64,000 bases of DNA from contig NC_087390.1 of assembly GCF_963675165.1 (NCBI RefSeq), positions 4,101,301 to 4,165,300 on the forward strand. The letters are read 5' to 3'. The DNA is from Halichondria panicea. Its lineage: Eukaryota > Porifera > Demospongiae > Suberitida > Halichondriidae. The notes beneath the pieces are model-generated. The model searched no databases and was not told the origin of the DNA. It worked only from the letters and a program-made list of their open reading frames with translations. Below, in pieces: positions 13,170 through 57,800 of this stretch; the stretch's first letter is position 1, and the number at the start of each line of letters is the position of its first letter. Position numbers and translations under genes: made by a program.

Positions 13170-14255
13170 GCGTTTCGAGAGCGTTTGGAACCAAGTTACT
13201 CGTGGTCTGTCACAATGGTGGATGGTACCCCGAATCGCGAGATCCAACCACGGAATGCCATCGAGTAAATCGATCAACGCGGTCCATGGGATGGCGGGAG
13301 TGGTCCAACCAGGTCAATGTGGATGACATTTGGAAAGGGGCTCGTTGACACTGTACACAGGAGCGGGTCGAACATCTGAGTTTATGCCTGGCCAAACAAA
13401 TCGAGCAGTAATTAGTTTCTGAGTGGCACGACAGTTCGTCACCATGGTTGCGGAACCAGGGGTCTTTGGGTGCCAATGGAAGTATCGCGGGTCGGTTGAG
13501 TCCGGTAGGGCTACCATGAGAGTTGAGGATGGTGAGGATTGGAGTGCACGGACAGTGGCGCCATGGCCACCTGAGGGGATTGGCCAGAGAGGAGGCGTTC
13601 GTTTCAATTCGAGACAGGGCGTCAGCACTGTGACGCCCTGACGTGCCTGATAGTCGAGGTGAACTGAGCGATGTGTCGTGCTGCGAATTCGAACGTTCAG
13701 TGCGTGGGTTTGTGGCTTCGAGAAAATGGCGAAACTGTTTGATGGAGAGGAGGTAAACACCGAGCTGTCAAAGGCGGGATTCAGCTGGAGTCATCTTCCT
13801 GGAGAAAAACGAGATGGGATTCCATTTGCCGTTAATGTTCTGTTGTAGAACTGCAGTGTCGGATGCGTCGGTCATGAGACAGGTGGGGGCATCCGGTTGA
13901 GGGTAAGAGAGGAGCATCCTTAGTTGCGTCTGAATTGTTCCATGTGAGTGTTTGGGTTTTGGTGTGTTTGGGTTTTGCGGGCACAGTGAGGTAGAAAACG
14001 ATGGTAAAAGTTCACAAGTCCAATGAAGCGCCGGAGTTGGCGTGAGGTTGTCCCGAACAGCTTGCACTTGCACTTTGTCGGGTGATACCGTGTTGGTCAA
14101 TGTGGTGTCCAAGGAAATCCAGGCATGTGTTGGGGAACACCGTTGGCAGAGAGGCGTTCGAAAACAGTTTGCATCGTGGGTGGGGCTGGCTGGTACCCCA
14201 CGGAGAACTTGGTCCATAAATCGTTTGGGCAGAGGCAGGTTCAAACAGGTACATC
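13170..14255 (-). mobile_element. decayed Ty3/gypsy-like pol (RT, RNase H, integrase)
   Basis: Read on the minus strand from high to low coordinates, the parts come in pol order. There is an RT tail (LDFLGHHIDQHG), then an RNase H start (CLMTDASDTAV and ISFFSRKMTPAESRL), then an integrase with FVWPGI and CVQCQRA of the HHCC region and a degraded core. The pieces sit in different frames with several stops and deletions, so this is a pseudogene of a gypsy-class element. Its position relative to the gag/protease piece at 11.5 kb is wrong for one intact element. Two insertions or a rearrangement are more likely. Confidence 0.75.
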
Positions 14256-23191: not shown

Positions 23192-26100
23192 CTGATGTCC
23201 ACAAGGTAGGATTATTGTGTTGATGACATTGTCCATGCAAATCATACACTTCTTTAAACCAGAGCTGTTGCCTTGATCAAGTATGATAGGTGGGGCTCGA
23301 AGTGTTCTTGCTTCCACGAGTACCTTCCTCATTTGATTAGTATAAGCGACTTCAAATGGGACCTGCATGCAAAACAATGATTTTTTGTCCGTGTGCACAC
23401 ACACAAACTTGCAATACAGTGTGGTGTGATAATTGACCTACACCAATTGAACAGAAAATGGAACACTGATATGAAGAGTATGCATTAGAAAAATACACGT
23501 ACACTCTTGTAAATGAAAGCACCGCAGGTGCTGATACCTCGGTGGAGATACCCAAAGCTACATACATAAAGCTACTAATACACATGATAAACAATATTTT
23601 GCTACATGCAAAAACATGACTGTTGTTAAAAAACGATCGATGCCAAGTCTAAAATTAATGGCTGCATTAGCAGAGCCTTGTAGCTCACTCTTGCAGCTAC
23701 CAATAGCTAGCGTTCTAGTGCAGAGCTAACTACTAAGTAGAGTAGCAACATTCGGTAAACAAGTTTGGCTATGTGCTCTTCAGAAAAGGCTGCAATGGCA
23801 AGCAAAACTATTAGCAAAACTCAAGAACGAAGCATTATTTAGCAAATCCACAAATTAAAATCCAAGGAAACATGACTAGAAGCTTATAGAAACTCCTACT
23901 TGCACTTGATTCATCCTGGAGCAGCTGTATCAGTCTACACGCACGCACGCCATGCGCACCGAGGCATAATAAGTTGTGTCGATATACAATCAAACCCTTG
24001 CCATCGATTTTTCACAAGGTTCTTTGTTTGGAGTCAGCTCCAAACAAAGAATAGGTATACCTAGTCCCACAAAAACATTTGCATGTGAAAAGTTGGGAAA
24101 CACCATTGACCAAAAAAAGCACCTTGGAAGAAACAAGAAATCAGGCCACAACGTTATTAACATGTACATTTTTCACCAAATATTCAAGGGACAGAAACTT
24201 TAGTTCGGCCTCTACCGTAAATGTTTTACCTTTCCATCGCTATCTTTCAGATCTAGTTTGGCACCAGCTTGCAAAAGAATTTTAGCAATATCAATGAAGT
24301 TGTTTCGACTAGTGATGTGTAATGGAGATAACAGAGACACATGGGTCTGTAGGTGAGAGTAGAATTAATATTCTAGTTTCAAGGCACCCCATACACAGGT
24401 ACCTGTTTGTTAACATTGGCATCCATATCTAAAAGAAGTTTCACAGTGGACAAGTGCCCAGCATCACATGCTTCATGAAGGGAAGTTAGACCTAGCTTGA
24501 ATTCCTGGGATGCTGCAATCTTTTCCTCCACAACCAAACGATTAACTTCGTTGTCATCCCCAATCGATGCTGCTATTAACAGTCGATTGGCTCCAGATGC
24601 TAGCATTCTGCACATTTCATACAATTTTACAATTTTATACATTACCTGAAACCCAGCCATTGTAATATACCTCCTGATTTCTACAGCTGATGAGCAGTCA
24701 AAAGACGTTTCCCCACTGTTGTTAGTAGCGTCGATATCCACTCCTTTAATGGATAGCAAGTACTCCACTGTATCCAGACTATTAGAGCGTGCTGCCTCAT
24801 GAAGAACAGTGGTCGCAGTATCCACACTCTGAAACATGCAGAAACGATATACGTACACGTACACGTACGTATGTAATAGAGACTGAGTGCCTGTGCTATA
24901 TTATTACCTGAGGCCGTGCCGGGGCCAGCGTTTTGTTACCCAAGGCCGTGCCGTGGCTAGCGGGTATAATAGTCGTCTGGTTTCTTTGTCTGTTTGTGAC
25001 ACATGAGTCTGGTTTACCTGGATTTTATAGCGTTGTGTTTACTTAAATTTTAAGTGGCATACTCAGATGCTAAAGTGCTTCGTTGTTGAACTTACGCGTT
25101 GGAACAAAATTATATAGCTATACGTATTTATCCGTACCCAGGAACAATGGAACAGGGGTCACTAAAGTAGAAAGTGGTGCTTCTTTTCTTATCCTGATCC
25201 TAGCATTTATATACCACAGCAGCCATATTTTTAGCTTCTTTCATGACTTTGCTGTGATCCTAGTTCACAATGAATGTCTCATACACTACTAAGTTTTCAA
25301 AAGTTTCACATCTTTATTCTTCATGTCAACATCCGAGTGCTAGCATTTCAGTGCTGTAGTTACCCGAGCGCGTGAGCGGCCACAGGTATATAGTAGTCGT
25401 TTGGTTTGTTTGTCTATTGACATGTGAGTCTGTTCACCTGGATGCCACGTGTGGAGTACTCCGCACAACAGTACTCCACACAACAAGTTATTAGTTTTAG
25501 AAGTGTCAATGTTAAAGCTTCGTTGTCATATAAAAGCAAGCGAAGCGAACTTGCACTGACGTTGCCTAGCTCTACTAAAAAGCACCTGTTTGTTGCTGTT
25601 ATAATTACGTAATCATTTGTGTTACTCCCATCACTTGTAGGACGAGTCAAACGTTGCCATGAGGAAGATTATTATCTCCAAGCAAGTCACCAAGAAGGGG
25701 AAAAAACAGAGGAGGAAAATACAACACTATACACGCAACCTTATTCGAGGTGGATCTAAATAATTATTTGCAGCTGAAGTGATCCTTACCGGTCTCTATT
25801 AAAAGTACTGTTTTACTCCTCTGGATTCTATTTCTTCATGTCAACAGCCGAGGGTTAGCAGCTCATAGCACTGCGTTTACAGCATGGATAGCTCCACACA
25901 ACAAGTGACAGATTTCGGTCGTTTCTCCATGTAACCAGAGGAGTGTTCCGTTACATTCTACTTTTAATAGAAACCGGTAAAGGATCACTTAAACGTATAT
26001 ATCTACCTCGAATAAAGGTCGCGTGTAGAGCTAGCTTTTATACAAAGATTTAAGTTAACATCGAAATCTGGGTTGTTTCTCCATGCATGTAACCAATCCT

Positions 26101-29100
26101 AGATTACATCATCTATACATTTTATTAATGACGTCATAGTAGCTGGTAGGTGTATAATAGCAGCAGTATATGCTGCACTAGTAGCACCAGTAGCAGCAGT
26201 AACACTGGTAGCACTGGTAGAAGCAGCAGCACTGGTAACACGGGTAACACGGGTAGCACCGATAGCGCTGGTAGCAGCAGTAGCACTGGTAGCGCTGGTA
26301 GCAGCAGTAGCACTAGTACCACTGGTAGCACTGGTAGCAGCAGTAGCACTGGTAGAAGCAGTAAAGTAAACAACCGATTATCAAACACGTGCTATTTTCG
26401 AACGCTTGTTCTTGAGGACAGCAGCCCAGAGCACTAAGCTGATAATACCTAGGTATAGACAAGTCTATTCAAGTCCAAACTCACGGCCAACAAAAAGCTT
26501 CTTCGGCAGAGTGACAGGGCCAAATACTCAACTACATGTATTGGAACAGTTTTGTTCGAATATATACATAGCCACGATTTCCGTATCAACAGAAGCTCTA
26601 AGCAGCTAGCTACAATGCATGACTGTAATCTACGACTAGTAAGCTATGTACAGCTCTGGTTTCGAGGTTTGACTGCAAACCGTTAGATAATGGTGGCCTC
26701 TTGAAAATGTCCAGTATTACCATCAAAATCAATACCTTTTTATTCATAATCTCCATTTTTTGCCTAAAGTTGCAGTCTTACGTCATGGCTACACTGGAGA
26801 TTATAAAGAAAAAGGTTCGGATTTTGATGGCAATACTGCACTTTTTCAAGAGGCCACCATTGTCTAACGGCTTGCAGTCAGACCTCGACCAGCAGCTGTA
26901 CATGGTTTACTAGTTGTAGAATACGGTCATGCATTGTAGCTAGCTGCTTAGAGCCTTCTGTCGATACGAGGGAGAGAGTTCAAAGAATCGTGGCTATGTT
27001 CGAACTAAATGCGCACTATCACCCATGCCAGGCCATGTTTTAATCGGCCTGGAATCGAGGCTACACTGAGACCAGTTGTGATGATAATGATGATAATGAG
27101 TTGATTTACGTAACACACCTTCATTTCAACGTTAGCTCCACTTTCAACTAGTAGCTGAACAATATCAGCTCTCCCTGCCCTGGCTGCAGCATGAAGAGGA
27201 ATTTGATCAGCAGTGCCTTCTACGTTAATCTGCACACGCCATCATCATTAAAGCAGCAACATAAAAGTATACAACTGCATGATCAATTCATCGCTCACAT
27301 TAGCTCCTTTTTCCACTAATGCCCTCACAAACTCCAACAGGCCATCCTCGCACACTCTCACAATCGCAGAGCAAGGACAGTATTTATCGACTTGGGTGTT
27401 TGGATCAACAGCAAGTGAGTTTAGTAGTTCTCTAAGGAGCAAATTAACAACACTCAAACAACACTATAAACAAAAAAATATTTTGCATCTTTTTGTGGTA
27501 CTGCGACAAGAAAAATACTGTATAGCAGGTAATTTTTGTTGGTGCAAATTTTCAAATATTTTGTATTAATTTTGTTCAGGATATTGATGTTGAATCTATT
27601 GCGGTAGAATAATTTCGTCGTTTTAACTTTCGTATGATGTTCTTCAATACGAAAGAACCCGCTATACGGTATGTAATTTGCACCAGGGGAACCATGCAGA
27701 CCCAGTTCAACAAAATAATTGGACTGGAAACGGGGCTAATTAACTTTGCTTGCAAAGATGGCGGGCTATACACAACCACAGAATACCTCTACGTTTAGTG
27801 GGTTGACTGCTTACTGGAAGCCACGCCTTTAATCAATAGCAGTGCATTAAAGAATAATTGTGCGGTATATATACTCGATCACAGAAAACCAGGAGAGATT
27901 TGTGGGATGCTGCTTGAAGCTACTGGAGAGGGTAGAATTCCTTAGAAACAGAGGAGGCTGGACACGCGTCATCTGTAGTCATCATTAATCACATGAATAC
28001 GCTTAAAACCGAGCCTTTCCTTCGATCTCAGGTAAGTTAAGGACTGGGACCAGCAATTATTGCTGAATCAGCTAAAACGCAGCCACGCCCACAATTTTTA
28101 ATGTTTTATGTGTAAAAATTCAGTTTACCGTAAGACCTCGATTTAAGGCGACCCTCCAAATATGCGACACCCAGGAGCTTCAGCAATTTTCTGACCTCTA
28201 AAAGTAGCGACAGCTGCGTTGACAATTATTTTTTAATGTCGCGTTCTAAATAGAGGTAAATGTAGCCACCCCCTAGCCTCGATTGTAGCCCACTGGAAAT
28301 CAGTGTTTTTAAGCGGCCTGAAATCGAGGTAAGTAGACTCTGTAAAGTTACCTCCAATTAGATGCGACCCTCTAAATATGCAACACCAGGACTTCAATAT
28401 AATTTTTCAACCTCCAAAAGATGCGACCTCTGGCTTCGTAATTACTAAAAAGTGTCGCTTTAAATCGAGATTTTACGGTAGCTACTTATCTTTTTTAGCT
28501 GATGTCTAAACGTTCCTTTTAGCTCTAAATTGTTAGTGTAGTAGGTAGTTTGAAGGTTTGTGCAGACATTTCAATCGGAGGGAGCTGTTCCTTCAGCCAA
28601 AGGTGAGATTTTAAAAAACCTAGTTTTCTAGCTGTTAACTTTACATGTAAAAGCTAACTTACTTTTCATAGAGTACAATGCTCCCTCCCGACGAGAATGG
28701 CTACATCCGCATTTAGAGCTAAAAAAGAGAAGTAGCTAAACTGATTTTTTACACACAAAACATATTAAAAATCGTGGGCGTGGCTGCATTTTAGCTGATT
28801 CAGCAATAATTGTTGGTCCCAGTCCTTAACTTACCTGATATCTAGCTGAGTCAGCATTTTACCCAACTCTTCCTCGTCTATCTCTCATTGAAACAGAGGA
28901 GGCTGGACACGCGCCATCTGTAGTCATCATTATAATCACATGAATACGCTTAAAACTGAGCATTTCCTTCGATCCAGCTGAGTCAGCATCTCTCTTGTAT
29001 TGTATATCTGTCTTGTATTATATCTCCTATTAGTTCAGGAGTCGTAGTAGTTTAACACTATGATCGTTATATACATGTACCTACTACATCCAGACACGAG

Positions 29101-32100
29101 TAAAAAAAACGAAGGCAAGTGCAGCAACAACTCAATGTTTGTGTTTTCTGGCTCATTGCTTCTAGTATGACTATGCTACTCATGCAGTTTCTAGTTCACT
29201 GAGTATTTTTAGCATCATTTATTACTAGTATGGAGTGCTATAATCGTTTGCAGTCTTTTGGCTTAGCTGGATTGCTACTGTTCTCTGCAGGTTTCCGTAT
29301 ATCTCTCCATGCACACACATTTCCTCCAACATTATGACGCGTGTCCAATGAACCTCCTCTGCTGTGGTAACGAATAGTCCCGAAACTTAAAAACCAAAAT
29401 GCAGGTTGAATCTGCGCATGCGGACATGTGGTTGCTTTGTCAACCAGAAGGATGCATAGCAACAAAATTGGTTTTTTCCCAGTTGAAAAGGAAGAGGACG
29501 GCAGACTCTAAAACACCAGGAGAGCTTGCAGAAGGCTACTTAAAGATTTGTAGAGAGCAGATAGGAACAAATTCAAGAAAACGTTGACAACCAGCAACCC
29601 ATTTTTAAACTGTATGGATAGTTTTGAAGGCTAAACAGCGGGTGCTTGCTTTCTATTATGCTCTAGTGTATCAGAAGAAGAGACAGTCTGCCCCGCTATA
29701 TAGCAGAAGAGAAGCGTGACAACCGTTTTGAAGCCAAAATGATTACAAGAGCCTGAACAGGCTAAATAGTGGTACTTCTACATGTGCAATATTCCGCTCA
29801 AAATAAATTCCTACAAAGAAAAATAATAATCATACAGTACATGTAATAGTTGTACCATGGATATCAAGGGTGTATTGACTACCGAGGGAATACATACAAC
29901 TGCAAGAGGTAGTACAATAACAATACACATGCAGATAGATATCCATGGTACAGTGGATTTCAGTTGCGTTCGAATGTTGCGTTGACATATGGACTTCCGT
30001 GTTGCGCTATATGATAGGAAAAACGCGGTTACATTGTCACATGAGCTTCCACGTGAATCTCAGATTATTCACAGTGCTAGTGCTAGTGTTCAATGACATG
30101 GCTGACTCGTACGTGTCTGACAGTAACAGGGACTCTGGCTGGCCTGGTTACAAGGAGAATTGTGCAGTCCACTCACTGAAGTCTATCTCTATGGGTCGTT
30201 GTTGGCAACGCCAAAGTAGAGTGGAAATTTCGGCAGCTTCGAAGTAGAAGTAAGTAAGCTAACACGTTTTCCATGTAATACCCTTTGTGTATACAGTGTA
30301 AAACAGCACGGGTTAGGGTTTCCCCTTCAAAATTATCACTACGTATATTCGGTAAAGGTAGTCAACCCAGTACGCAAGTCCGAATACACTGTCAGAAAGC
30401 TTAGTGCTTATGATCCTCATTTGATGAACTAACAGAACAGTTGAAAAAGTGTTTGGACAAAATATAACCCAGCCAAATTGGCTACATTGAGCCAGGGCAT
30501 GGATTAAGGGAAGCAGAGGTGGCTGTATACATGCAGATGAAGATGTGGATACTATGTATGACATTTACAAGAGAAAGACTGAGATTTTGCTCTGGTGCTT
30601 TCTAAAAGATCTGAGATTACTACATGCAGTAAATCGAAAAAAGCAGAGACAAGCTCCAAATCTAAGAAGGAAGCACTTGCTTCGAAAATTAGCGAAGTTG
30701 AGTGCATCGTGAAGAAACTTCAAGATAAGCATGGCAACCAATATTCAGTAAAAAAGTGTAATGCTTGGGCATATTTGATTCATGTGGGAAAACACGATTC
30801 ACACGATGATCCTCCAGATTGACCCTACTTCCGAGGAACAATGAAACGAAAATTGCAGACTGCTAGTGAAGGACGCGAGAATTCTCCACCTTAACCTCAA
30901 GCTGCCTCTAAGTCTTCACCATCAATTATTACTTCTCCCAGTAAAAGGGCTGGCCTCCGGAGTGAGCAGTTAGTTAAATGGCACTCACTGCTTGAGAAAG
31001 GTGCCATTTCTCAACTGCAGTATGATGAAATGCAAAAGGCAATCATGGAGGAAATTAAATCCAACTATTGATTGTTGTAACATTGCTAAATTCGAGAGTA
31101 CATGAATGTCACACTAGCAGGGTACATGGGATTTGTACCCTAGAGTATCGTGAGAGTTTCAATGGATATTCCTTAGTGTCAGAGCATATCATGGTACAAG
31201 TGAAGAAAGAATAGGAATTCTAGTATATATACAGCTTAGCCTTAGTTTAGGCCACGCCAACATAATTGTTGCTATGTAGCTATAGTGCGTTCTAATTAGA
31301 AGCTTCATATCGGCCACCACCGTACGAATGTTAATTGCACTAACCTGAAGTCCGACAAGTTTTTTGTTTCGATGGCCTTCAGCAGTCTGTCCGGTCCAGA
31401 TGTCAACAATTGTGACACAAGTTTCAGCTGCTGGAAACGTGTAGACAACCAGGTGTTCTCGCTCTCAGGGGAACAAGATGAAGCACTCTCCTGCAGATAT
31501 GAGATACCCCATGCATACTTGAAATAATGATTATGCTCTATGTAGGCAGGCTAAGCATTCTACCAAAGTCATGCATGAGAAAAACTACAATACAGACTGT
31601 CTTTAACTATGTCTATAGTTATAGGCAAGCTAACAAAGATGAAGCACCCTCCGGAATGCATTAGACTACAATTATACATACTGGAAGAATTTAAACGGGC
31701 TGCGGTAGGCACGCTATGAAAACACAAAACGGCTCTATAGGTACATGTTAGTACCCAACAGGAATGATACCTACCTGTCTAATCATTGTCGTGGGATCAG
31801 CAACCTGAATATATGGAGAATCTACCACTGACACCAAACGACCACTCTTATCAAGTTTCGTCAGTCTTTCAGCTGTTTTCTCCATGGAATTTTCCACACA
31901 ATGTTGCATACTTTTCCCATCCGTATCTAGTATCTGTACAGGAATAATTATAGGCAGGCAGTTCAACAATCCCTGTATGGTCACCCGAAACACTTTGGGT
32001 GTCAATTTGTGGAATTTCAGGCTTATTCTTGATTTTGCCCCAAAAGTATCTATACCTAATATGATTCCTACAGTATTTCCGTGTACAGTTGAGCCTCGAC

Positions 32101-35100
32101 CTAAATCGCTCGTCGCTTAGTTTTTTTTTACGATGGGCTGCAAAGATTGTCTAGGCTTATCACGACTTTTAGGCACGATCTTAATCATTTTAGGCACGAT
32201 AACCAAAAATGCTGTACGAAACACATTGTTTTTAAAACCGCGCGCGCATCCCTGCAGCAAATTTTGACTCGAAAAAGGCATTTTGTTATGAAGTAACTGT
32301 CATGGACAGATCTAACATTAAACAGTGCGTGACTATCTTTCCTACCGCAACACAGTTTATTTATTATTTACTCAACTAGCAACTATTCACCCGCGTGCAC
32401 AATAACGATCAAAAGTGCGGCTTTAACTTCATTGCAATGTACGTACCTCTGTACTTGACCCAACAGAAAGAAGGAACTCGACGATCTGTTCATGACCTGC
32501 ACAAAGCAATTAGCATACATGTGTCTACTAATCATACTCATGTATTACTTTATTAACCCGAGGACGTGTCGCAGCCAGTGGGTTAACTTATAGGAGTCCG
32601 TTGGTTAGTTAACCCGCGGCGCGTGGGCGGCCACGATTATTAATAGTACTGGGGCCGTGCCACGGCCAGAGCGTTATAATAGGAGTCCGTTGGTTAGTGA
32701 ACCTGAGGTGCGTGGGCAGCCACTTGTTATAGTAGTTGATACCCGACGCCATGCCGTACCCAGCGTGTAGTCTGTTGGTTTGTTACCCGAGGCACGCATG
32801 GGCGGCCGATGTTAAAGCTTCGTTGTCAAATAAAAGCGAGCAAAAGCTACATGTAAGAAGGCAGCCCAGAGAAGGCTGGAACCACTTGACCTTAGCTAAT
32901 TAAGGTCACTAATAATTGGATTTCTTCAAATTTCTCTTGCAGACTACTTCAAGCCTAGTTTTTAAGTTATTTTGCAGGGGGGGTCAAATTTTATTCTCAC
33001 CAATTTTGCTCAAAAGCAGAGATACAATCAAAAGTCAGTGCTCTTGTACTAGCCTTGATATCATGAGCGGCTTGTTCTCGAGGTCAACACACAGCTAGCA
33101 TTGAGACTGCTTCTGAGCAAAATTGACAATGATACATTTGTGGTTCCTGTGGGAAATTTACTAGACAGCATATGCATTGTTTCAATGCGCGCGATGAAAG
33201 ATTCTGACGTCCTCGCTTAGCTTTAATATTGGCGGTTATAAATTTGGTGACCTTTGGTAAAATTCGCCAAATTACCAGTCATACAGTATAACCAATAACC
33301 CTTACCTGCCATTGCTGCATAAAACAGTGGGGTCCAGCCATTAGATCCACCAGGAAGGTTGAGGTTAGCACCATGAGAGACCAAAATTCGAACCATGGCT
33401 CTGTTTGGGGTCAGAGATGTTCAAATTCACAATGCCAACTGCATGAATACATAAGTTTCCAAAACACTTCGCAAAAACTGCTGGACATGTTTTCGTAAGT
33501 TTACAGTTATTCATAGTGATATAATTATGGTGATGTTCAGAAACTATTAATAACCATGGCTGCAGCTATTATTACTACTTTACTTCTCGATCCTACTTGC
33601 ATACACATGCAACAGCTTTTGCTCTTGGCCCACAGTCAAAGCTTTCTAGTCAAGGCTGTGGCTAAGAGATAGTGTCACAATTAAGTAGTGTTTGTTTACA
33701 TTGATAGACTAGACTACGCAATGCAGAGCAGAGCCTGAGCAAACGGCAGCTTCTGATTTGGTGAGCAGTTATTGTCAAAGCCTATAGCGCATATAATTAT
33801 ATATTCTGAGGCAAAAGAGGTTGAACGTGAGAGCAAGCATGACTGTATCCATTCATGTATCAGGTATTGGCTGGTTTCCCAGTAATTATGGATTCGGTGA
33901 CAGGCTCTGGGAAAAGGGCCCATTTGGCGCAAGCTACAAATGTATGATTATCGGCATCTACATGTGTTGAGCTCTTATCTTGGTGTAGAGGGATTCTAGA
34001 CAGGCTAGACAAATTAGCTAGAGACAGGATCCTAGCTATAAGTAACAACAACTAGTTATAGACAAATTGACTTCACAGTGTAGCTTAACCAAATTCTTAG
34101 ATCGAGGAGCAAAACATCAACTGACAATACAGGTAAGGTGAGAGTAAAACGAAGTTAAAGTGAAGTGAGGCAAAAAAGGTAAAACAAAACCTTAAATATG
34201 TGGAGCGGGGCCCCAGAGGCTCGCACAACAACAAAGGGAGGAAGTGGAGCACTAACAATGAGAATTGTTAGAAAAGAGTATGATATCAACATCAAACATC
34301 AAATCATGGTTAAGGTAGTAGTAAATATTACATAACGTGAGGTGTTAATAAGGTTCTAATAAATGTTAATTTAAAGTAAGGTACATTGAGCGTGAACAAC
34401 ATGTATACATACCAGCCGAAGCCATTAGCACTTGCAAACTTTGCGTATATGTTTGATGCTTGCAAAACAGGAATGAACATTCGATCCCACCAAGTAACTA
34501 CATGTATACGACTATTTCATGACTACTGTATATGCTTGATCAGAGGCCGCAGCTACTAAATGTTTCATTTTGCTGGCAGAGGAGGCTACAATTCGAAATA
34601 GGCCATTGTTCAAGAGAGATTCAAAAACGTTTAGTTAATTGTCACCAAAAGTCATTTTCACCTGCATAAACTCGTGAGAAAGTCTTTATGAAGCACTAAC
34701 AAGCTGCTAACTACAGCTGCTTATGCCACGTACAGAAATGCTAGAGTCAAAGTTACTGAGGCTACTATGTGAGAGCGGCCCCTGATCAAGCATATACGGT
34801 ATAATTATGTATATCAATCTGGTATAATTAATGATTACATAATGGAACGTACAAATTTCCTGCTGTGCAAGCAAGGTGCAATGGTGCATGGGACTGCTGG
34901 TTGCGTTGATCCACCAGTCTCTCCTGGTCATCATTCCCAGCTTGCTCCTCACAATTGGCCAGGATGTGACACACACTCTCAATATCTCCACTTTGAACAG
35001 CCAGGCATAATGAGAGCGGCTCCTAAGCGGATAGATAATAAATTATAAATATACACGTAGTACATGTTACTATAGTCTATTTAGAGTGAAATCGAGTTGT

Positions 35101-38100
35101 GGATATTTAAAAGAAACAGGTATTTAACGAGGATTTGTAAAACGAGGAGGATACTTAGAAGGAGCCTGTGAGATAGGTTCGGGCTGTATCTCGACACGCT
35201 ATGAAACGGTCTACTGCGTATACTAGTCCGTGAAAAATAAAGTAGTAGTACTAATTAGTGTCATTTCCTGTTTCACAGAACATAGGAATAATTTCGGCAG
35301 CGGGCGAGAAGCCTTAAAAACGTGTCGCTACAGAGTACATGTACCGAGAAATTAAAGCATAAATATACATTTAAACTCAGCAACGAAAAATCTGTATCTA
35401 TAACTGCATGTGTGCTATAATTATGACATACAAAAATGTTCACGGCAGCAAGTATACAGTAGAACCTCGATTATCAGGACACGAACCATCCAACAAAGAC
35501 TCTAGGAGGAAGAAACCAGTCTATGTTGTATCACTCTGCAAGCTAACAACACAGTGCAGATAGAGTATGTGAAGCCTCAAACAACTCAAGAGAACTGGTG
35601 AAGAGTACCCTGTACTTCAGACAAGATTATAGCTGAACTGGCACATCACTCAGGATCAGAGACTCCAACCAAAGAACTACTATACCGGCTGGCCGCGGCA
35701 TGGCCTCGGGTAATAAAGGTCAGTATACATCGTTATCCAAAGACCCCAGATACCAGGGTGAGAATTAATAGTGCATGCGCAAGCTGTTGTTATACCATGT
35801 ACGTCTCAGAAAAAGTGCGACCTGGGATCGAGGCTAACGTACAATCATAAATTTGACAGGACAAAAAAATATCATGTGTAAAATGTTCAAAAAATGGGAA
35901 ATCTCATGTGATTGATTGAGCCATTAAAAGTAACACGTTTTTTTTCCAGTGATAAAAAGTTTATAGGACAGGGCTGCATCCAGGATTTTGGATCAGGGGG
36001 GGGGGGCGAATTGGGCAAATTAAAAATGTAGGAGGGGCGAAGTCATCAGAATTATGGCAGTACAAATGAATCTGCCAGATCCTGGGGGGGGGGGGGGGGC
36101 GAAACAGTGCCCAGGGGGAGGGGAGAATTACCCCCCTCACCCCCCCTCAATGCAGCCCTGTAGGATATGGCTAAGAGATTGAGTACGTCAGGTGAGAGCG
36201 CTCAAGAGGCAAGTTACTGTTACAGCCTGGACATTTAAATTTCTTGACTGAGCATTTGGTGCTATAATTATATTGTATATGATCTGCAGTTGAAAAATGT
36301 TATAGTCCCCGGGAATGCAGTACCCAAGAATGTTCTACTGCTATTAGTTGACCTTTTGACCCTGTCGAACCTCCTCTGCTTCCAACTCATGCTGCTCACG
36401 ATCAAACTATCTATAGTTAGCTCATGACAAGATACCATAATAATGTTTGAATTTAAAACTCAAAGAGGGGGAAAACCAAATCCAAGGGCTCTATTACATG
36501 CATGTATACCTTTTACCCTGGCAGTCATGTACAATGTGATCATGTAGCATACAATAATAATTATAAGAGTATATAATATACAAATGTTATATTCATGTTA
36601 ATGTTAACCTTGTGTAACAGTTTGCACATCTCCCCTCCCATCGAAAGGTTGAGTGGTGTGTAGCCGTAGGCATCACGAGCAAACTCATTAGCACCTGCTT
36701 CCAACAGTATGGATGACACCTCCACATGATTGTTGAGACTCGCATAATGTAAGGGTGTACGTTGCCGAGTGCCACCTTTATTGTTCACACCAGCCTACAT
36801 GTACGTACATGTACATAAAAAGTACTAGAATTATTAGGCTACTCTCCAAAACTATTAAAACATAATTATTATTACTAGTGACTGACTATGTTTATGAAAA
36901 CACCAGAAGTGTTGATGCCTCACAAGTCTGAAGGTGCTGATACAGTATCACTACGTGGACATTAATTACATGTACTAATGGGCTAATTGCAACTATAGAT
37001 AGACTAGGTGCTCCCGTATAAAATAACAGCCGAATTACTACAATTGCAAAGACTGACCAGGGAAAGCACCAAAAACAATGGAAACAAGCAAATAAACACT
37101 CACCCCATTAAGAAGGAGAAACTTTGCAACAACTTTATGACCTTTGGCAGAGGCCAGATGCAGTGCACTCTTGTGGCGCAGTCCCCGACCATTTGGACTG
37201 ATGTACGTTGTGCTCACTAGCCTTACAACCTCATCTATGTCTCCTGTGTCACTAGCTGCACACAGTAGCATTGTTCCCAACAACAACCGCCTGCATTGTG
37301 TAATACACGTGTACACATAACATCAAAGCTATCATTTCAACGTGTTTAACACATATGCACTAGCTATCATGCAACAAGGTACGTACTACTTGACAGTTAG
37401 ATTAATTAGTACCAACCTGATGTTGTAACTAGAAGTGAGTGCTAGTGGCTGCAACTGCTTGGCATCTCTGATCTCAATATCTCCGCCATATCTAAGCAGT
37501 TCCACCATGATCTCATCTAGGTTCAACAACGCAGCCAGATGCAGTGCATTTTGGTTGAACTCTCCAGAACACTGGTTTACCTGGAGGGGAGAGCTAGAGA
37601 ACATTAAATACTTAACTTGATCTTAATGATTAAAATAGTTTCCTTTTGTGCACTGTAATAAAAATATGTAGCTTAACACATGCATGTGTACGTACACGTA
37701 TCGCTATAATTACCTGAGGCGCGCGTGGGCGGCCACAGGTATAGTAGTCCGTTGGTTTGTTTGTTTGTTTGTTTGTCAGATCTGAGTCTATACTCACCTG
37801 GATGCCACAGCACTTGGTTTACAGCATGGATAGTCTTCACACAACAAGTTATTAGTGGCAGATTTTGATGTTAAACCTTCGTTAATTGTCAAATAAAAAC
37901 GAAGAAGCTTGTGACTGGGTCTGATTACATGGATGCTATAGCAGGTTGCCTCCACACAACAAGTTAGTATAGTGGCAGCTTTCTATGTTAAGCAGCTTTT
38001 TATGTTAAAGCCAGCGAGCAAAAGCTATTCAGTTAAGAAACTTGAATTTGCACGTTGGCCTCTACTAGCATACATGCGTCCTTTATTCGAGGTCGGTACG

Positions 38101-40130
38101 TATTTACAGCTGAAGTGATCCTGTACCAAGAACAATGGAAAAGGGTCGCTAAAAGTAGAAAGCTAGAATTATGATTCTTGCTTCTTTGCCCCTAGCCCTA
38201 GCACCAGAAGATACCAGGAGCCACATTTCTCTAAGACTAGGCTTCTTTGCTGTGATCATAGTCCACAGTACATCCATACCAAATCTCCATTTTCAAAAGT
38301 TTCAGCATGCCTCTAGAGTCTGTAGAATTTCTTTGCTCATGTTACTTGCTACTTAGCCAGCTTCCATGCTTCATACCATACATACAACTCCGTACAACTG
38401 CATTCATGTAAACAGCCGAGGGTTAGCACTTCAGTGCTCTAGTTATAACAAGATTCTACGTGTGATTAAAGTGTGTACGTATATACGTATAGTGTACGTA
38501 TAAACGTATAATATTATTATATACGCACATAATTACATGTGTTCATGTAAACTTACATCAGCGTCTTTCTCCAGCAAGAACCTCACCATGGCCACATCTC
38601 TCTTCTCAATGGCTACATGAAGCAACAAGCGATGGGGCTGTCTCTCCTGCTTGATTTGAGGCATTGGAGACATAGGAGAGACTGGAACAGCCAGTCGTTG
38701 TACAAGCTCCGACGTTCGTCGTCGCCCACTACTGTACGAAAATATAGACTCATCATCGTACACAGGCAATTGGTACTCGATATTGACATTCAGGCCTTCT
38801 TCTGTCATTACCGCGATAGTGGAATAGCTATGGTGGTCAGTATCTATAGTGGGTGTTACCATAATGTGGGGTGACATGATACCACCTGATACGCTTTCGT
38901 CAAAAATCAATTTTAACAGAGACAAATCTCCTTTTCTGGCTGCTGTGAAGGCTCGGATCAAGCGAAGTTGATTGAGTGGTAATGCAGTGATAGTGAATTC
39001 AAGTTGACCGGCAGTGAATGTTACACCATGACTGATTCGAACACTCTGAGCATGATTTAATGTCGCTAAAGGGCTCATGCTAATGTCCTCATCGTCTGAA
39101 ACAGATTGAGAGTGTTCAAGGATAGATGTTTGAGAAGGCCCTCCAGGCTGCACAAAAAATGAATCGTCAATTTCACTGTTGGATAAAACGAAATGACCAT
39201 CGACTAAGGTGGGCTTGGGCTGATTTTCTGTTATGACAGAATTGACTTCTTCAGCTGAATGGATAAAAGAACATGTGCATCCATGGCAAAGCCAACATTT
39301 ACTTACATACCAGGAATCCACTTGATGCTAACATGACTGGCCAAAATTCTAGCCTCGCTAGGTAGACGGATAGTAGACGTTGGACCAGAACCGATGATAG
39401 CACCCTCAGGCCCAATATGATACTCGCGCGATACGAGACGTCTCAGAATGAATGGAATATGACAATTACCAGTGTCTAGGACACGAGCAATCTTCAGCTG
39501 GATGTGCTCTTTCAATGGCTGACCAAAAATATTTCCTGCACATGACAAGTAAAAAAACACTTTTGGGATTAATGGTGTATACACGGGAACTATAGACTGC
39601 ATGGAATTAAAAATCAGGTTATCTAGAAGTATAATTAATACTGTACTACATGTAGTAGCAAAGCCGTTGTATGTACTGAACTGGGGAGCTATGAATGATA
39701 GACCGCTTTATTGGCAGGGTGGCTTGAGGCAAAACAAGGATCAACAGACATGCAAAAACACCCAAATGAATGTGTGCACGTCCTCCGTTTCTAATCCCCC
39801 TCCTTCTTTATATCTACATGTACGTATGATGTACGTACTTAGTACGTACTATCTTAATATTATTGACCTATCAAACATACCAGCTTCACTGTCCTCAGGA
39901 TTCTCTTCCGTGCTGCTAAGGCTATGCATACGAAGCAAGTCATGAGTAAGCCCTACTCTTCTTCTAGATGCAGTTGTGGGTGGTGGTCGAGATTCACTCC
40001 TCTCTAATCGGGTGACAGCTGTATGGAATTGACGCTCCCTCTCTCTAATGAAATCCTCGAGGGCTGTGATTTTTGACTGGGCTTGTCCCAGTTTACTCAG
40101 CACTGAGAAACGCCTTCTTTCAGAAGACAT
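23192..40130 (-). CDS. FHA-like / ankyrin-repeat / RING protein, 3' end unresolved
   Basis: Coding segments on the minus strand: 40130-39881, 39535-39311, 39254-38557, 37580-37417, 37290-37104, 36794-36609, 35022-34853, 33400-33306, 32496-32447, 31933-31775, 31490-31345, 27431-27299, 27229-27119, 24828-24403, 24346-24230 and 23362-23192. Every junction is GT-AG and keeps the frame, including codons split across introns. The product is about 1,080-1,096 aa up to the last exon found. Domains in order are a charged helical N-terminus (about 10-50), an FHA-like domain (about 100-195, IIGSGPTSTIRL and ILASHVSIKW) and about nine ankyrin repeats (365-680). After a linker come about six more repeats (780-1020) and a RING start, CMICMDNVINTIILPCGHQ. 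The remaining RING cysteines must lie in a further exon I could not find. By family logic it is a scaffold-type ubiquitin ligase. A phosphothreonine-reader role is doubtful because usual FHA contact residues are changed. Confidence 0.85.
23515..23975. mobile_element. partial member of the TGCCTCGGTGCGCATGCG family
   Basis: Shares AGAGCCTTG(T/C)AGCTC, CCAATAGCTAGCGTTCTAGT, AACTACTAAGTAGAGTAGCA and CGAGAACGAAGC-type blocks with 44.85-45.20 kb. It ends in CATGCGCACCGAGGCATAAT. Located downstream of the last recognised exon of the FHA-ANK-RING gene or within its next intron. Confidence 0.55.
25364..26060. repeat. GGCGCGTGGGCGGCCAC dispersed repeat (intronic copies)
   Basis: Carries the marker phrases of the family also seen at 32.6, 37.7, 51.6 and 62.7 kb: a GC-rich CCCGAG(C)GCG...GGCGGCCAC head, TAGTAGTCGTTTGGTTTG, GTTAAAGCTTCGTTGTC, then CTGAAGTGATCC and a region around GGTCACTAAAGTAGAAAG. 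A partial head is also present at about 24905-24970. It sits in an intron of the FHA-ANK-RING gene. Confidence 0.55.
26145..26372. repeat. trinucleotide minisatellite (AGCAGTAGCACTGGT)n
   Basis: Imperfect repeats of AGCAGCAGTAGCACTGGT create a Ser/Thr/Gly-rich ORF on plus and a Leu/Pro-rich ORF on minus. These frames are repeat artefacts inside the intron between 27119 and 24828. Confidence 0.85.
26553..27004. mobile_element. long foldback (palindromic) element
   Basis: Arms of about 220 bp run from TTCGAATATATACATAGCC at the left to the complement of GGCTATGTTCGAA at the right. They match through GCAGCTAGCTACAATGCATG, CCGTTAGA(T/C)AATGGTGGCC and CATCAAAATC, with a short centre. Mismatches and small indels show it is not recent. 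Intronic in the FHA-ANK-RING gene. Confidence 0.8.
27515..27671. mobile_element. TACCGTATAGC-family MITE (degenerate)
   Basis: Left end TACTGTATAGCAGGTAATTT and right end AACCCGCTATACGGTA. It lies just upstream of the exon at 27431-27299, in the same intron. Confidence 0.6.
27949..29361. mobile_element. composite CAGAGGAGG-ended element with internal inverted repeats
   Basis: CAGAGGAGGCTGGACACGCG begins at 27949 and recurs in direct orientation at 28894 with about 90 bp of shared flank. An inverse end (GACGCGTGTCCA...CCTCCTCTG) closes at 29361. Between them, 28030-28130 is repeated as the reverse complement at 28740-28840. A further block near 28140-28460 repeats GCGACCCTC(C/T)AAATATGC. No 9-bp target duplication fits the outer ends, so two or more insertions may overlap. 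Confidence 0.55.
29851..29952. mobile_element. 102-bp element with 15-bp inverted ends
   Basis: The ends are TGTACCATGGATATC and its exact inverse. The interior is unique to the window as far as I can see. It may be a very small MITE or a simple hairpin. Confidence 0.45.
30595..31071 (+). pseudogene. recently disabled ORF, unknown sponge-type family
   Basis: A single plus-strand frame runs from 30595 to the TGA at 31069-31071. It is interrupted only by TGA at 30820-30822 and TAA near 30893. The text before, between and after is continuous and gene-like: a Lys/Ser-rich basic start, KISEVECIVKKLQDKHGNQY, YFRGTMKRKLQTASEGREN, and a C-terminus with KWHSLLEKGAISQLQYDEMQ. Both stops could come from single transitions. 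It lies antisense in the large intron (31345-27431) of the FHA-ANK-RING gene. No introns are seen, so it may be a retrocopy. I do not know its function. Confidence 0.55.
32563..32850. repeat. GGCGCGTGGGCGGCCAC dispersed repeat, clustered heads
   Basis: Four consecutive degenerate versions of the GC-rich head (each ending near GGCGGCC, GGCCAG or GGCAGCC, followed by a TAGGAGTCCGTTGGTTAGT-like phrase) are stacked before one GTTAAAGCTTCGTTGTCAAA tail. Confidence 0.55.
35731..35838. repeat. 105-bp dispersed repeat
   Basis: Begins GTTATCCAAAGACCCCAGAT, contains GCATGCGCAAGC and ends CCTGGGATCGAGGCTAA. The same order is found at 45557-45658, inside the third CREB intron. The terminal phrase, in variants of GGCCTGGAATCGAGGCTA, is scattered at 27.05, 48.18, 60.14 and 63.51 kb. 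It could be a SINE-like or MITE end; the type is unresolved. Confidence 0.5.
37711..38165. repeat. GGCGCGTGGGCGGCCAC dispersed repeat
   Basis: A near full-length member with the head ACCTGAGGCGCGCGTGGGCG, a (GTTT)n stretch, CACCTGGATGCCACAGCACT, AAGCTTGTGACTGGGTCTG and a tail near GGGTCGCTAAAAGTAGAAAG. It is closely related to 62742-63245. It lies in the intron between the exons at 38557 and 37580. Confidence 0.65.
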
Positions 40131-40360
40131 CTGATGGTTTACCTTGTTGGTCTATCCGGCTGCAATCTAACTCTTCAATCTATGCTGCAATCGAATATCT
40201 AGTCTTGATCTCTTGGGTATAACTTTACTCGATCAAGGAGATGAGAGGCTAATATCAGCCATAATTATTATCAAGAGTATTATGATATAATTATCTCTAT
40301 CGTAAACTCTTATGGATAGTCTTTAGTTGGGCGTGGCCTGACCGTCCCGAGATAGATAGT

Positions 40361-41055: not shown

Positions 41056-42044
41056 TTAAGCCACTGGCCCAGTTGCTAGTTCTCTGTGTTGTGGTGCAGC
41101 TCTGGGGATTGCAGATACCGCTCTTCTACCTCCTGGTGGTGCTCTGTATATGCTAGCAGACTTCAATCTCATTAGTCGAACAGTGGCTGGAGCCGACTGC
41201 GTACGAAGTCTACGGTTTAGAGGTTTGGGATCATCAAACGGATCTGTTGAGTTGTTTAGTTGTTAATTATAATAGGGTTATTTTTAGCTGTGCTACGTGC
41301 ATGATTGTATAATTATGCGCTTGCTTACCTTCATAGTCAAAGGCAGATCTTTTTTTTCGAAGGTCAAAAGTATTTCGACGGTAACCCTCATCACCATGAT
41401 ATCCAACAACTGAAGGAGTTGTGGGGATGGAGAGGTGACCACCATATAGTTTGCGTGTGTAACCTGCAATTAAGGATTAATTGTCTATCTTGCTTATACA
41501 TCTTCAAACATGACATGTGATAATGATTCTTACCAGCTCCCAGCGCCTCCCTTTCCTGTAGGTAATGTTTTGTAGAGCTATTACGTATGAACTTGTCGAA
41601 CACTTGTCCCATCATCGAAGCACTCAGCTCACTACTACTTCCGGTAGATACCACTTGCTTGGCCTCTTGAACAGTTTTTGGCAGAGATTTACTTTTAAAA
41701 TACTTCTTGCAGTGCTTATCATGAAGAGCGTTGTACTGTGGTATTCCAAGATTCAAAGAAGGCTGTGTTCTGTCTACCTCATCATTCGCTTGTTTACTGA
41801 GAGTAATCCCATCCAGTACGAATGACTTCTCCAGCTCCTTTAGCCTGTATTATAACAATGTTTTTGATACACAATTGGACACAATTGGACACATGCATAG
41901 AGTAACTCACTTTTCTGGAGATTCATATTTGAAACGTCTGTAGTGTGGAAAATTTGTATTTGCACTTTTAGCTCTCTTTGGCTTTATTGGAGGTAGCACT
42001 ACACTTCGGCTAGTTTCAAGATTATGTGCATCACCTTCAGCCAT
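41056..42044 (-). CDS. uncharacterised 255-aa basic protein
   Basis: Four minus-strand exons, 42044-41911, 41844-41534, 41463-41329 and 41243-41056, join with matching phases and GT-AG junctions to give 255 codons plus TAA. The sequence is basic and rich in Arg, Lys and Ser. It has no membrane segment or signal peptide. A central stretch, PQYNALHDKHCKKYF, recalls the YN-x-L-x-DKH...YF start of ERICH3-type ciliary proteins (weak, from memory). The C-terminal part carries two Arg/Lys-Ser-Ala-type phrases (RTQSAPATVRL and LKSASIYRAPPGG). It shares a divergent promoter interval with the CREB gene. A cilium-linked role is a guess; the gene structure itself is solid. Confidence 0.85.
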
Positions 42045-49605: not shown

Positions 49606-51846
49606 TTATTGCTGACAAGGAATTATTTCAAAGCATGATAGACAATCCAAAAGCCATGAAGCAGGAACTATTTTGACGTTCGTTCGTCTACTAGAAACCA
49701 CATACTTGTCCCTTTGCTCACAAAAAGGATCACAGACTACAAAAGTAGAGCATGGCTTAGACTTGGAGCCTTGCTTCATATGATAGGGGTGGGTTGTATG
49801 TGGCAAATATATGGGCTCCCTTGCAAGTAGCTGTCCATCAGCAAGTTTAATCAGTTTGCCAAGCTCATCTTTGGATGCTTGAGGTGGAGCAAAGAGTCCA
49901 CTCAGAAAGATCTCACATCCGTCAAACAACCCAGGGAGCTACACAATGGCATATATTTATATGGCATAACAATTTTACCTGTGTAATTATGCTAAAATTA
50001 ATACCTTCATTATCGCATTCTCTCTTCCTTTCTTTGGAGCATCACTAACTAGATTGGAATCTCCCACAGTAACACCCTTTATCTCATAGTTTATTTCATT
50101 TGTCCAACTTTTTGCTTCGAGAGAATCCGTTACCCCTGACAAGTTAAAGTTGACACATGTATATAAGAAGCCCGGGAAATTCGTAATTAATTTATACACT
50201 GCATGTAGGTGAAACAGCTAACACACATTGGAAGCTGACTATCCATTTTCCTTTTGCAACTCCACAAAGGAACTTTAGTGTTCGAGAGCAGCACTTGGAC
50301 GAGTTGCAATTTGTCACGATGTGGGACACTACATAATTATAATTATCGCATAAAGAAATTATGAAATTGAATTAATTACCATTAGTTGAAAAAGAATTAA
50401 CCACCCTAACTCCCAGAAGACTTGCAAGTTCCTCCACTCGGTTCTGAGTGGCAAAAAACAGACAATATCACATACCAGCAAGTACCTTACAAGTAAGCAC
50501 TTAAGATGTACGTATTATTTATTATACATACATGTATATAATTACCATATAGCGGCGAGGGTATAAATGTTTGTGGTTTTCGCAGATTAGGCATGTATCG
50601 CGAACATACATGCCTAATCCATTATGCGAAAACCTTTCTAAAGGCATTTTCGTGAAAGTTTACACCCTCGAAATATACCCGCCATACGGTATACATAATA
50701 ATTATGTTCAAGCTAGGTTACTGTATTACTAGAATATTTTACGAGTGAAAAACCTTTGCGAATGAGCCAAATCAGCAGAAAAGTTGACCCTTTACGATCT
50801 TAACTATTGCGTTCTGGAAAGGATCATGTGTATTTACTTAGGTTTGCGGATTTAATTGTTGCGAATTGATCAACCCTTGAAAAGTTCGCAAATGTTTGAT
50901 GCTCAAAACATTCCAGTAATACGGTATAGGAAAACTCATTTACGAATATTTAGAAGAAAAAGTTATTGAGTTCCACATTTTATATACCGTATAGCAGGTA
51001 ATTTTCGTGGGGTAAAAATTCGTTCAACTCGAGAAACAGTGGTTTTCGTGAGTAAAATCTCGTTGCCTGCACTGCATTCCTATGTTTCGGTAAGCCACGC
51101 CTAACGTTAAAATTTCGTGGAGGTCAGCTTGCCCACGAAAATAACGAATATTTTACCCCACGAAAATTACCCGCTATACGGTAGTACCGTAATCTTCTAA
51201 TTTATCGAACAGCAAAAAATAATTATTTTGGAAATTGTCCGGGTATAATTGGAACAGATTTTTATAGAGCATGCGAAGTGTCCGGAATAATTAGAACAAG
51301 CAAATAACTGATTCAACTAGAGCACTAAAGTGCAAACCCTCGACCGGCTGGTGACATGATTAAGAAACCAGAAGATCGAGTGATATAATGCAGTGCATGT
51401 AGTGATGTATGACTGAGCTGTCTAGCATGCACAGCAACTCAGGAGCAGTAAAACTAAACCAGATGCTGAGTTTTAGTGGTACAGATATACATGTATGCAC
51501 TGTGGATCACAGCAAAGAAGCTTGGAGTCTCAGAGAAGTATGGCACCTGGAGTAGGACCTAGCAGAGACAGCAAGCCAGACACAATTCTAGCTTTCTAGT
51601 TTAGCGCTCCTCCATTGTTTCTGGTACGGGATCACTTCAGCTGTAAATACGCAGGGTGCCTCGAATAAAGGTCGTGTGTAGTTAGCTAGCTGCCAACGTG
51701 TATTAAAGTTCAAGATGTTTAGCTTTTGCTCGCTTTTATTCGACAAGGAAGCTTTAACATCATTTAAAACTACCACTTTGTTGTGTTGAGGCTATCCATG
51801 GCATAAACACAGTGCTATCGCATCCAGGTGAGTAGACTCAGAATAC

Positions 51847-54800: not shown

Positions 54801-57800
54801 TGTCTGTATTTTGTGTGTTGTGTCGATGATTCAAAGCTCAAGCTACGGTAACCTTGAATAGCTAGTCCTAACTAGAGTGTTGGATCCAGTCGGTGACACT
54901 ATAAGCACCAGAAAAAATTCAATTTTACACTTGGTGCTCAATTGGAACAGTATATTTCGAGATTGGTGCTAGTATTAGAGCGGTGCGGTAATTAGAAGGT
55001 ATACGGTAGGGTACTGTGGTACAGTTACCAATCATCACCACAGTACAAAACATCCAGGTGATACACTGTGTATTAAAGTAGACGTATTGATACTTTGTGT
55101 ACTGACCTTTATGGACGCAATGTGTAGTGGCGTTTCCCCTCTTATGTTCCGACGCATTGTTTTGGCTTGCTGTGAAGTGAGCCGGGCTGGGGAGGCTGCA
55201 TGTACATGTACCTCTTGATATTATATGGCAATCAATACCGTATAGCGAGTAATTATCATGGGATAAAAAATTCGTTCAACTCGAACAGAGAGGGTAAAAA
55301 TTTCGTTTGACTTTATTGCCTGCACTGCATTGCATGCGTTCAGGTAAGCCACGCCTACGATTTCGGTCAGCTTACCCACGAAAATAACAAAAATTACCCG
55401 CTATACGGTACTATAACTAACATCTGGAAGTACAAAATTGATAGAGAGTACATTTGTAGCTGAGCACAGTACACAGTAAGACACAATATATTATACTGTG
55501 TGTGAGGACTTTCGTCCATTGTATGTATAACCCGTGGCCGCCTATGCACCTCGAGTTACTGAGTGGAGAAGATTCAAATGATAGGCTGTCCGATTGTAAA
55601 TTGCGAGTTTTCGCCTAGAACGCAAACAAACACACGCAAAGAGTGAACATACATGTAAACGCATGCAATTCGCGATAGTTAGAAACGCAATAGCAGGGAT
55701 ATACCCACACTGGTTGATGGTGGTTTGGTTCTATATAACCACCACCGGCCTAAACAAAAATAAGCACCTAGCTTACTACAAAAATTTGTGGGTGTTGCTT
55801 TGAGATGAGGATCGAAAAAACAGTTGCAATAGGGGTTGTACGGTGACATAGTGTAATTCACAAATGATTAACTACGCATTCAAAACCTGATACAAGGTAC
55901 CGTAGAGCGCTTTATTTTCGAGAGGCTACATTTTCTTTGAAATGAATAAATGACCATACCCCTGCAGTGGAGAGGTCTTTGGATTTTAGCTCCTCGAAAA
56001 TAAGGCGCTATACCGTATAACATTGAGGGCCACCTGACAATTCCTACTTTTGTTCTCTTTCTTGCTCTCATCTAAATAGTGTGATAACTGCTTGGAGTTA
56101 CTTTTTGTGACAGCGTTACTCCCATAGCCAGCTTGTTGTAGTCGGTGCAGCTTGGCAGATTTGTCTAGCTTTGAATAGTTTCTCGTCTTTGTGACCATTG
56201 GGGAGAACGGAAATTCACCATTTGATGATATAGAATCAGCAACTTCATCAAGGACAAATGAGGGTCGCTTTCGAGGTCGGGATGGTTTATCATATGATCT
56301 GAAGACACTGTGCCTACGTTTATGGACAATAGTATCTATATTGCTTCTGGTAGAGTCAATAGTTGTGGTTAATGAATCACATGATTTTTGAACGGACAGT
56401 AAAGGAGATTGTATCGAGGGACAGTGAGAAAAATTTGAATCGAGGAATGGTCTTTCGGTTCGCTCAAGGTTGGTAACAGGACATGGTACATGTACATGTG
56501 TGTGGTAGCCTATTGCTCGCTTTCGAAAAAGGCGAGGTTTCTTGAAGACTCCATCATCATAATTCCTTCTTTCATTGTTAATGCTGGCTATAGAAGTGTT
56601 GGAAATGGTCGCTGGCTCACTGGTCATTTTGGCACTGCCGTACGTACTCGGTTTAGAGAAGTTACAAGATTGTGACAGTAGATCTCTGATATCGGATACA
56701 AGCTTAATCAGGTTTTCTATTTGCCTGTTGGTTTTGAGGTCTCTGATCCAGACAGGAAGACCGCACACAGGACAGTTCATGGTCTCTTGCATGGCATGGC
56801 TGATACATAACCTAGGAAATGGAATTGAAAAGTAAAAGCAAACGGGATAATTATTAATATACAGTAGTTTCGAACAGCAATTGTTCATGTACATGTGTAT
56901 ATAATTATACTCAGAACTCTACGAATTGTTTAGAAAAAATACCTGCAGAAGTGATGATCACAGCCTCCTAGGGTGTGTGGATCATCCATTACCTTGTCAC
57001 TGCAAAAGAATCACACAATCTTCAAATAAAACATGTACATAATAATATATATAGTACATGTATGTACATGTACATGTATGCATGTCGCCACAGGGTACTG
57101 AATGCCAATGGTAATGGTCTCTTGACGTCACCTTCGCTATCAAAACAGCACCCAACCATAACTCTAGCCTCCTGCGCAGGCTCTACCTTTGTCACAGGGT
57201 GAGGTGATTAAGATAAAATACGGGAGGAAATTGAAGAACAAATAACTGGCCCACTCTAACTACCTCATGGCTGGACTTTAATTTCTACTGTCTACATGTA
57301 GCAATTTGGGACTAGTCCAATCACAGTGACGTCCTCGTGCAGAATCAACCTTAAATAGGCGAGCGTGCCTCACCAAGTCGCGTTATAATGAACGTGGGCA
57401 TTCAGATCAATACAAATCAAGCCACAGCATGCCTACATATTCACTTATCATGAGTGTGCATTGTCCAGATCGACTGGCATAATTATACAGCTCCGGATGT
57501 GGGTGTACCAAGGTTAAGGGTGACGAGAGATAGCTGTAATTGTTAAAGATGATAGGGCGTTTCCACATCCGGTGCCGTACACACTACCGGAGTTTGTGTA
57601 AAATACAGCACCAGAAAGTTTTTAATTTGTGCTATAAAACATAAATATTTATTATGGAGTGGCGCTGTAATTACATCACTACGGTATGTAACTTTGCTAC
57701 CTAGACCCCCAGGCCTACAAGCTTATTAATAATAGTACCCCAGAGAAGCTCCCACTGAACTCAACACTTTTCATGTAACACGAGACTGCCCTAAGGCATC

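What the first reader, a model, noticed from the sequence alone, without database searches (positions are those of the whole stretch)
23192..40130. FHA-like + ankyrin + RING in one gene
Sixteen or seventeen segments join without a single phase conflict. They place a coiled-coil start, an FHA-like domain, about 15 ankyrin repeats and a C-terminal RING start in one polypeptide of about 1,090 aa. I know ankyrin-RING ligases (MIB, ANKIB1 type) and FHA-RING ligases (RNF8, CHFR), but not this three-way order in a well-studied animal. It would be a new ligase architecture, possibly lineage-restricted.
Basis: partly seen in the sequence, partly recalled or inferred. Interest (0 to 1): 0.75.

Follow-up and report, generated by a model that had tools for sequence, protein, structure and literature searches.

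The report
Ankyrin-RING ligase gene, FHA unproven

Summary
The gene is real and longer than reported. Sixteen minus-strand exons (40130-23192) join by GT-AG introns without phase conflict into 1,096 codons. A 17th exon at 18124-18038, 5 kb beyond the reported end, completes the RING and brings a stop: 1,124 aa. Pfam zf-C3HC4_3 rises from 28.8 to 47.7 bits, cut-off 27; the eighth zinc ligand is Asp. Ankyrin repeats are certain (Ank_2 E 3.2e-77). One Ank_2 match spans the doubted junction 31345/27431, so two genes are unlikely, though that acceptor is weak.

A much diverged FHA is not excluded.

Best reading: an ankyrin-RING E3 ligase (RING closest to CGRRF1 and IAPs) with an unassigned N-terminus: a new member of a known kind. 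No transcript or other animal genome could be tested.

The parts
39881..40130 (-). exon 1, start codon at 40130; N-terminal region, residues 1-83
   Evidence: in-frame stop 7 codons before the ATG (ORF 39849-40151)
39311..39535 (-). exon 2, residues 84-158, first half of the FHA-like stretch (unassigned)
   Evidence: no Pfam match of this piece
38557..39254 (-). exon 3, residues 159-391, second half of the FHA-like stretch, linker, start of ankyrin module A in the same open frame
37417..37580 (-). exon 4, ankyrin module A
37104..37290 (-). exon 5, ankyrin module B
36609..36794 (-). exon 6, ankyrin module B
34853..35022 (-). exon 7, ankyrin module C
33306..33400 (-). exon 8, ankyrin module C
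32447..32496 (-). exon 9, ankyrin module C
31775..31933 (-). exon 10, end of module C and linker
31345..31490 (-). exon 11, linker and start of ankyrin module D
27299..27431 (-). exon 12, ankyrin module D, after a 3,913-base intron
   Evidence: Ank_2 match across the junction
27119..27229 (-). exon 13, ankyrin module D
24403..24828 (-). exon 14, end of module D and start of module E in one open frame
24230..24346 (-). exon 15, ankyrin module E
23192..23362 (-). exon 16, end of module E, linker, RING ligands 1-4

Best explanation
A single-copy gene encodes a 1,124-aa single-chain RING E3 ubiquitin ligase. The ankyrin modules bind the substrate; the C-terminal RING, of the IAP/CGRRF1 class with a short hydrophobic tail, recruits a ubiquitin-charged E2 and probably works as a dimer through that tail. 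The N-terminal 360 residues are of unassigned fold. Shown: gene model by splice sites and phase, ankyrin repeats, RING match over its cut-off. Inferred: ligase activity, dimerisation, substrate binding by ankyrins. That Asp at the eighth position still holds zinc is inferred from other RINGs with Asp ligands (RBX1, recalled; plant RING-D class, passages of PMC6118397).
For: Gene model. Ank_2 E 3.2e-77 over 1,096 aa. RING zf-C3HC4_3 47.7 bits against a cut-off of 27, profile 3-48 of 49, with exon 17 added; 28.8 without it. Nearest solved RINGs: CGRRF1 E 2.3e-7, BIRC2 3.7e-7, BIRC3 8.2e-7. Strict second-half RING spacing after an AG: 1 of 8,035 AG sites of both strands, 0 of 234,424 in shuffled sequence (spacing fixed after the exon was seen). 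Broader pattern: 8 of 8,035, only 18124 downstream of exon 16; 14 of 234,424 shuffled. Donor 23192 and acceptor 18124 at the 98.9th and 97.5th percentile. Ank_2 match across 31345/27431.
Against: No transcript seen. The intron before exon 17 is the longest (5,067 bases). The eighth ligand is Asp and the usual Pro of C-P-x-C is Ala, so the RING could be weak or inactive. Four acceptors score low in a leave-one-out matrix, those of introns 2, 6, 7 and 11 (1.9, 1.5, -1.9, -1.3). An unspliced end of exon 16 (stop at 23169) also stays above the Pfam cut-off, 30.3 bits.
Confidence: 0.72

Rival explanations
1. The three-way reading: residues about 92-258 are a diverged FHA domain (of the kinesin/afadin kind, without the phosphothreonine-binding residues), split by an acidic loop, giving FHA-ankyrin-RING.
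For: By eye only: a G-x-I-G-S...I-R-L-P...H-V-S-I stretch in exon 2 and V-R-I-S-H-G...F-T-I in exon 3 stand in FHA order. In the kinesin/afadin model it scores 3.5 bits, reached by 16 of 1,000 shuffles.
Against: No Pfam FHA at E up to 10; not in 30 own-genome matches; other models 33 and 393 of 1,000 shuffles as good; hhalign 106 of 150 shuffles as good. By eye the Arg of G-R, the Ser of S-x-x-H and the Asn are absent. Limit: the hhalign profile gave under 20% probability to 3 of 14 FHA rows left out in turn.
Confidence: 0.3
2. Two neighbouring genes (N-terminal ankyrin gene ending near 31.3 kb, ankyrin-RING gene starting near 27.4 kb).
For: 3,913-base intron and a weak acceptor at 27431 (-1.3).
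Against: Donor and phase fit and one Ank_2 match crosses the junction.
Confidence: 0.07
3. The gene ends unspliced after exon 16 with half a RING (stop at 23169), so it is no ligase or is decaying.
For: Open to a stop; 30.3 bits for zf-C3HC4_3.
Against: Lacks ligands 6-8; exon 17 adds 18.9 bits with good splice sites.
Confidence: 0.1

Closest known systems
Mind bomb (MIB1/MIB2) ankyrin-RING ligases
   Same: Ankyrin repeats followed by a C-terminal RING; MIB1 RING3 is among the 39 solved chains matched (E 0.0053).
   Different: No MIB/HERC2 or ZZ domain and only one RING in the Pfam lists; N-terminus unassigned.
Plant XB3/XBAT ankyrin-RING ligases
   Same: Ankyrin repeats, then one RING (architecture recalled).
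   Different: RING_XB3-XBAT31 20.9 bits, cut-off 50.
IAP, CGRRF1, MUL1 C-terminal RINGs
   Same: Closest RING sequences, same ligand spacing, RING at the C-terminus.
   Different: No BIR domain listed; eighth ligand Asp.
RNF8 / CHFR FHA-RING ligases
   Same: RING.
   Different: No FHA match; ankyrins instead. The same genome has an FHA-plus-RING locus on C15, found by the same searches.

Membership tests
Ankyrin-repeat protein | Ankyrin repeats over the Pfam cut-off | tested here: met
   PF12796 255.6 bits, cut-off 27.3; PF00023 208.6, cut-off 21.1
C3HC4 RING finger | Pfam RING over its cut-off | tested here: met
   PF13920 47.7 bits, cut-off 27, exons 16+17
C3HC4 RING finger | Eight Cys/His zinc ligands | tested here: not met
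   Seven of eight; the eighth is Asp (sequence). Asp occurs in some RINGs (passages)
FHA domain | Profile match to PF00498 | tested here: not met
   No match at E up to 10
FHA domain | FHA beta-sandwich fold | tested here: inconclusive
   Exons 2 and 3 folded singly, mean pLDDT 41.3 and 31.3; the spliced protein is not accepted by the tool
RNF8/CHFR ligases | FHA plus RING | tested here: not met
   RING met, FHA not
Mind bomb | MIB/HERC2 and ZZ domains, several RINGs | tested here: not met
   Not among 13 families listed at E up to 10 for the 1,096 aa; the 1,124-aa protein was not scanned in one piece
ANKIB1 (RBR) | RING-IBR-RING | tested here: not met
   No IBR listed
XB3/XBAT31 | Its RING model over cut-off | tested here: not met
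   20.9 bits, cut-off 50
E3 ubiquitin ligase | E2 binding and ubiquitin transfer | not testable with these tools
   needs an assay

The most novel reading that the evidence does not exclude
The N-terminal region is a real but strongly diverged FHA domain, so this is an FHA-ankyrin-RING ligase: a single-chain E3 with a phosphopeptide-binding fold turned to another use, five ankyrin modules, and an Asp-ligand RING, possibly restricted to its lineage.
Probability: 0.28. Interest if true: 0.45.

Novelty: new member of a known kind. Interest (0 to 1): 0.2.

Why it matters
It corrects a gene model (a missed RING exon 5 kb downstream) and turns a half RING into a complete one, which makes ligase function testable. 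If the FHA reading held, it would add a new domain order to single-chain E3 ligases; on present evidence the ankyrin-RING order is known and only the N-terminus is unexplained.

Tried and rejected
RING second half: a first pattern with H-x2-C spacing gave nothing fitting; a looser scan printed 16 candidate exons, and 18124 was picked by eye for its IAP-like spacing. The candidate at 16160 was dropped: no second Cys pair at that spacing. Search for relatives: genome contigs 42 pattern matches, none confirmed (bacteria and archaea only, so no test of animals); viral contigs one hit, L021, 33% over 83 aligned positions, which falls in a phage ORF sharing one short identical stretch: judged chance. 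Own genome: no second copy of exon 16 (E up to 0.001) or exons 2-3 (E up to 1). Structure: two single-exon predictions with pLDDT 41.3 and 31.3, too poor for a fold search; none was run. Papers: searches found no paper with all terms; some searches were read as listings; passages were read from PMC13061254 (the words ankyrin and FHA do not occur in its held main text) and PMC6118397. No paper describing an FHA-ankyrin-RING protein was seen in these eight searches, which is weak evidence of absence. The module similarity has no control against unrelated ankyrin modules, so a block duplication is not shown. The FHA rows used are few and partly fragments.

Full report
Observation. On the minus strand, 16 exons from 40130 to 23192 join by GT-AG introns with consistent phase into 1,096 codons. 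An in-frame stop lies seven codons before the ATG (ORF 39849-40151). I placed the sites by hand, so phase agreement is not independent proof. In a leave-one-out splice matrix most sites score well, but the acceptors of introns 2, 6, 7 and 11 are weak: 1.9, 1.5, -1.9 and -1.3.

One gene or two. The doubted junction 31345/27431 sits inside an ankyrin repeat. In a 128-aa joined piece Ank_2 gives 66.0 bits from residue 23, the junction being after residue 34; the 34 aa before it alone match nothing at E up to 10 and the 44 aa after it alone give Ank_2 12.9 bits. This favours one gene, against the weak acceptor and the 3,913-base intron.

The RING. Exon 16 has only four of eight ligands. A scan of AG sites downstream of it for a Cys pair within the first codons in the right phase printed 16 candidates, of which 18124 fits. 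Joined, the RING reads C-x2-C-x11-C-x-H-x3-C-x2-C-x6-C-x2-D and ends 14 residues later at a TAA. Pfam zf-C3HC4_3 goes from 28.8 bits (exon 16 alone) to 47.7 (cut-off 27); an unspliced end gives 30.3. Control: the strict spacing occurs at 1 of 8,035 AG sites on both strands and at 0 of 234,424 in shuffled sequence; I set that spacing after seeing the exon. A broader pattern occurs at 8 of 8,035, of which only 18124 lies downstream of exon 16 on its strand, and at 14 of 234,424 shuffled; 1,352 AG sites lie downstream. The donor and acceptor rank at the 98.9th and 97.5th percentile. Nearest solved RINGs are CGRRF1, BIRC2 and BIRC3 (E 2.3e-7 to 8.2e-7), 39 chains in all at E up to 0.1. The eighth ligand is Asp; plant RINGs with Cys-to-Asp ligand changes are a described class (passages of PMC6118397), and RBX1 is another case (recalled).

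The ankyrins. Pfam gives Ank_2 255.6 bits and 11 Ank stretches. By eye they form five modules A-E, each beginning with a cap-like repeat and most ending in a D-x-x-G-x-x-P type cap. BLASTP of the modules finds B and E closest (36% over 114, E 2e-17 in this five-sequence set), with A and D hardly alike (E 1e-4 one way, 0.59 the other). Ankyrins resemble each other anyway and no control was run.

The FHA claim. Pfam lists no FHA at E up to 10 for the 1,096-aa protein or for five N-terminal pieces; NCBIfam lists nothing for the piece; the PDB search of 296 aa gives two weak unrelated chains. A PF00498 search of the own genome at E up to 10 gives 30 matches (29 candidates scored), none in the window, though FHA exons of ordinary kind are found, among them an FHA pair next to a RING on C15. 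hhalign against 14 FHA rows: score 9.8, reached by 106 of 150 shuffles; but left out in turn, 3 of the 14 rows also got under 20% probability. hmmsearch with filters off: kinesin/afadin model 3.5 bits (16 of 1,000 shuffles as good), own-genome model A1 1.9 bits (33 of 1,000), 14-row model -0.9 (393 of 1,000). KIF1A and afadin FHA, not members of the last two models, score 11.5 and 15.7, and 8.9 and 13.1, above every shuffle (maxima 5.6 and 7.8). The A1 profile finds 66 PDB sequences at E up to 1, RNF8 and CHFR among the 60 shown, so it has reach. The result is a clear lack of support, not proof of absence. Structure prediction could not settle it: the two exons folded apart gave pLDDT 41.3 and 31.3.

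Copy number and context. Exon 16 and exons 2-3 match only themselves in the genome. Exon 14 matches itself and 17 places on C12 at E up to 1e-5, 150 of 697 candidates scored. Neighbours on the same strand are an SPMAP1-like gene (88.1 bits) and a BARD1-like gene (RING 27.9 bits, below its cut-off of 35; BRCT 23.0, over its cut-off), so the genome is animal-like; the species was not identified.

Mechanism. Most likely a single-chain E3: ankyrin modules hold the substrate, the C-terminal RING brings the charged E2, probably as a dimer as in IAPs (recalled). Ligase activity, dimerisation and the zinc-holding Asp are inferred. The residue after the eighth ligand is Arg, the place of the linchpin Arg in active RINGs (recalled), which favours activity.

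Verdict. Ankyrin-RING ligases are known; this is a new member with an unexplained N-terminus. Interest is low unless the FHA reading is rescued by orthologues or a structure.

Noticed in passing
window 49609-49938 and 55989-56918, minus strand: BARD1-like gene: BARD1-type RING (27.9 bits, below cut-off 35) and BRCT (23.0 bits, over cut-off).
   Followed up: partly
window 41394-41849, minus strand: SPMAP1-like (sperm microtubule associated protein 1) open frame, 88.1 bits.
   Followed up: partly
G000 C12:1111893-1691748: Run of stop-free ankyrin frames of 1,697 to 4,555 aa, 17 matches to exon 14: a large array of intronless ankyrin genes.
   Followed up: no
G000 C11:942617-1295680 and C3 several stretches: Many zf-C3HC4_3 RING frames of about 720-780 aa in tandem (150 of 474 candidates scored).
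   Followed up: no
L005-L010 (G000 C6, C14, C2 twice, C11, C7): Nearly the same FHA exon at six places, by eye; may be a dispersed gene copy or mobile element.
   Followed up: no
window 13213-13767, minus strand: Open frame that looks by eye like a piece of a retroelement; Pfam gave no match at E up to 0.1.
   Followed up: partly
window 30583-31071, plus strand: Two open frames on the opposite strand inside intron 11, no Pfam match over a cut-off.
   Followed up: partly
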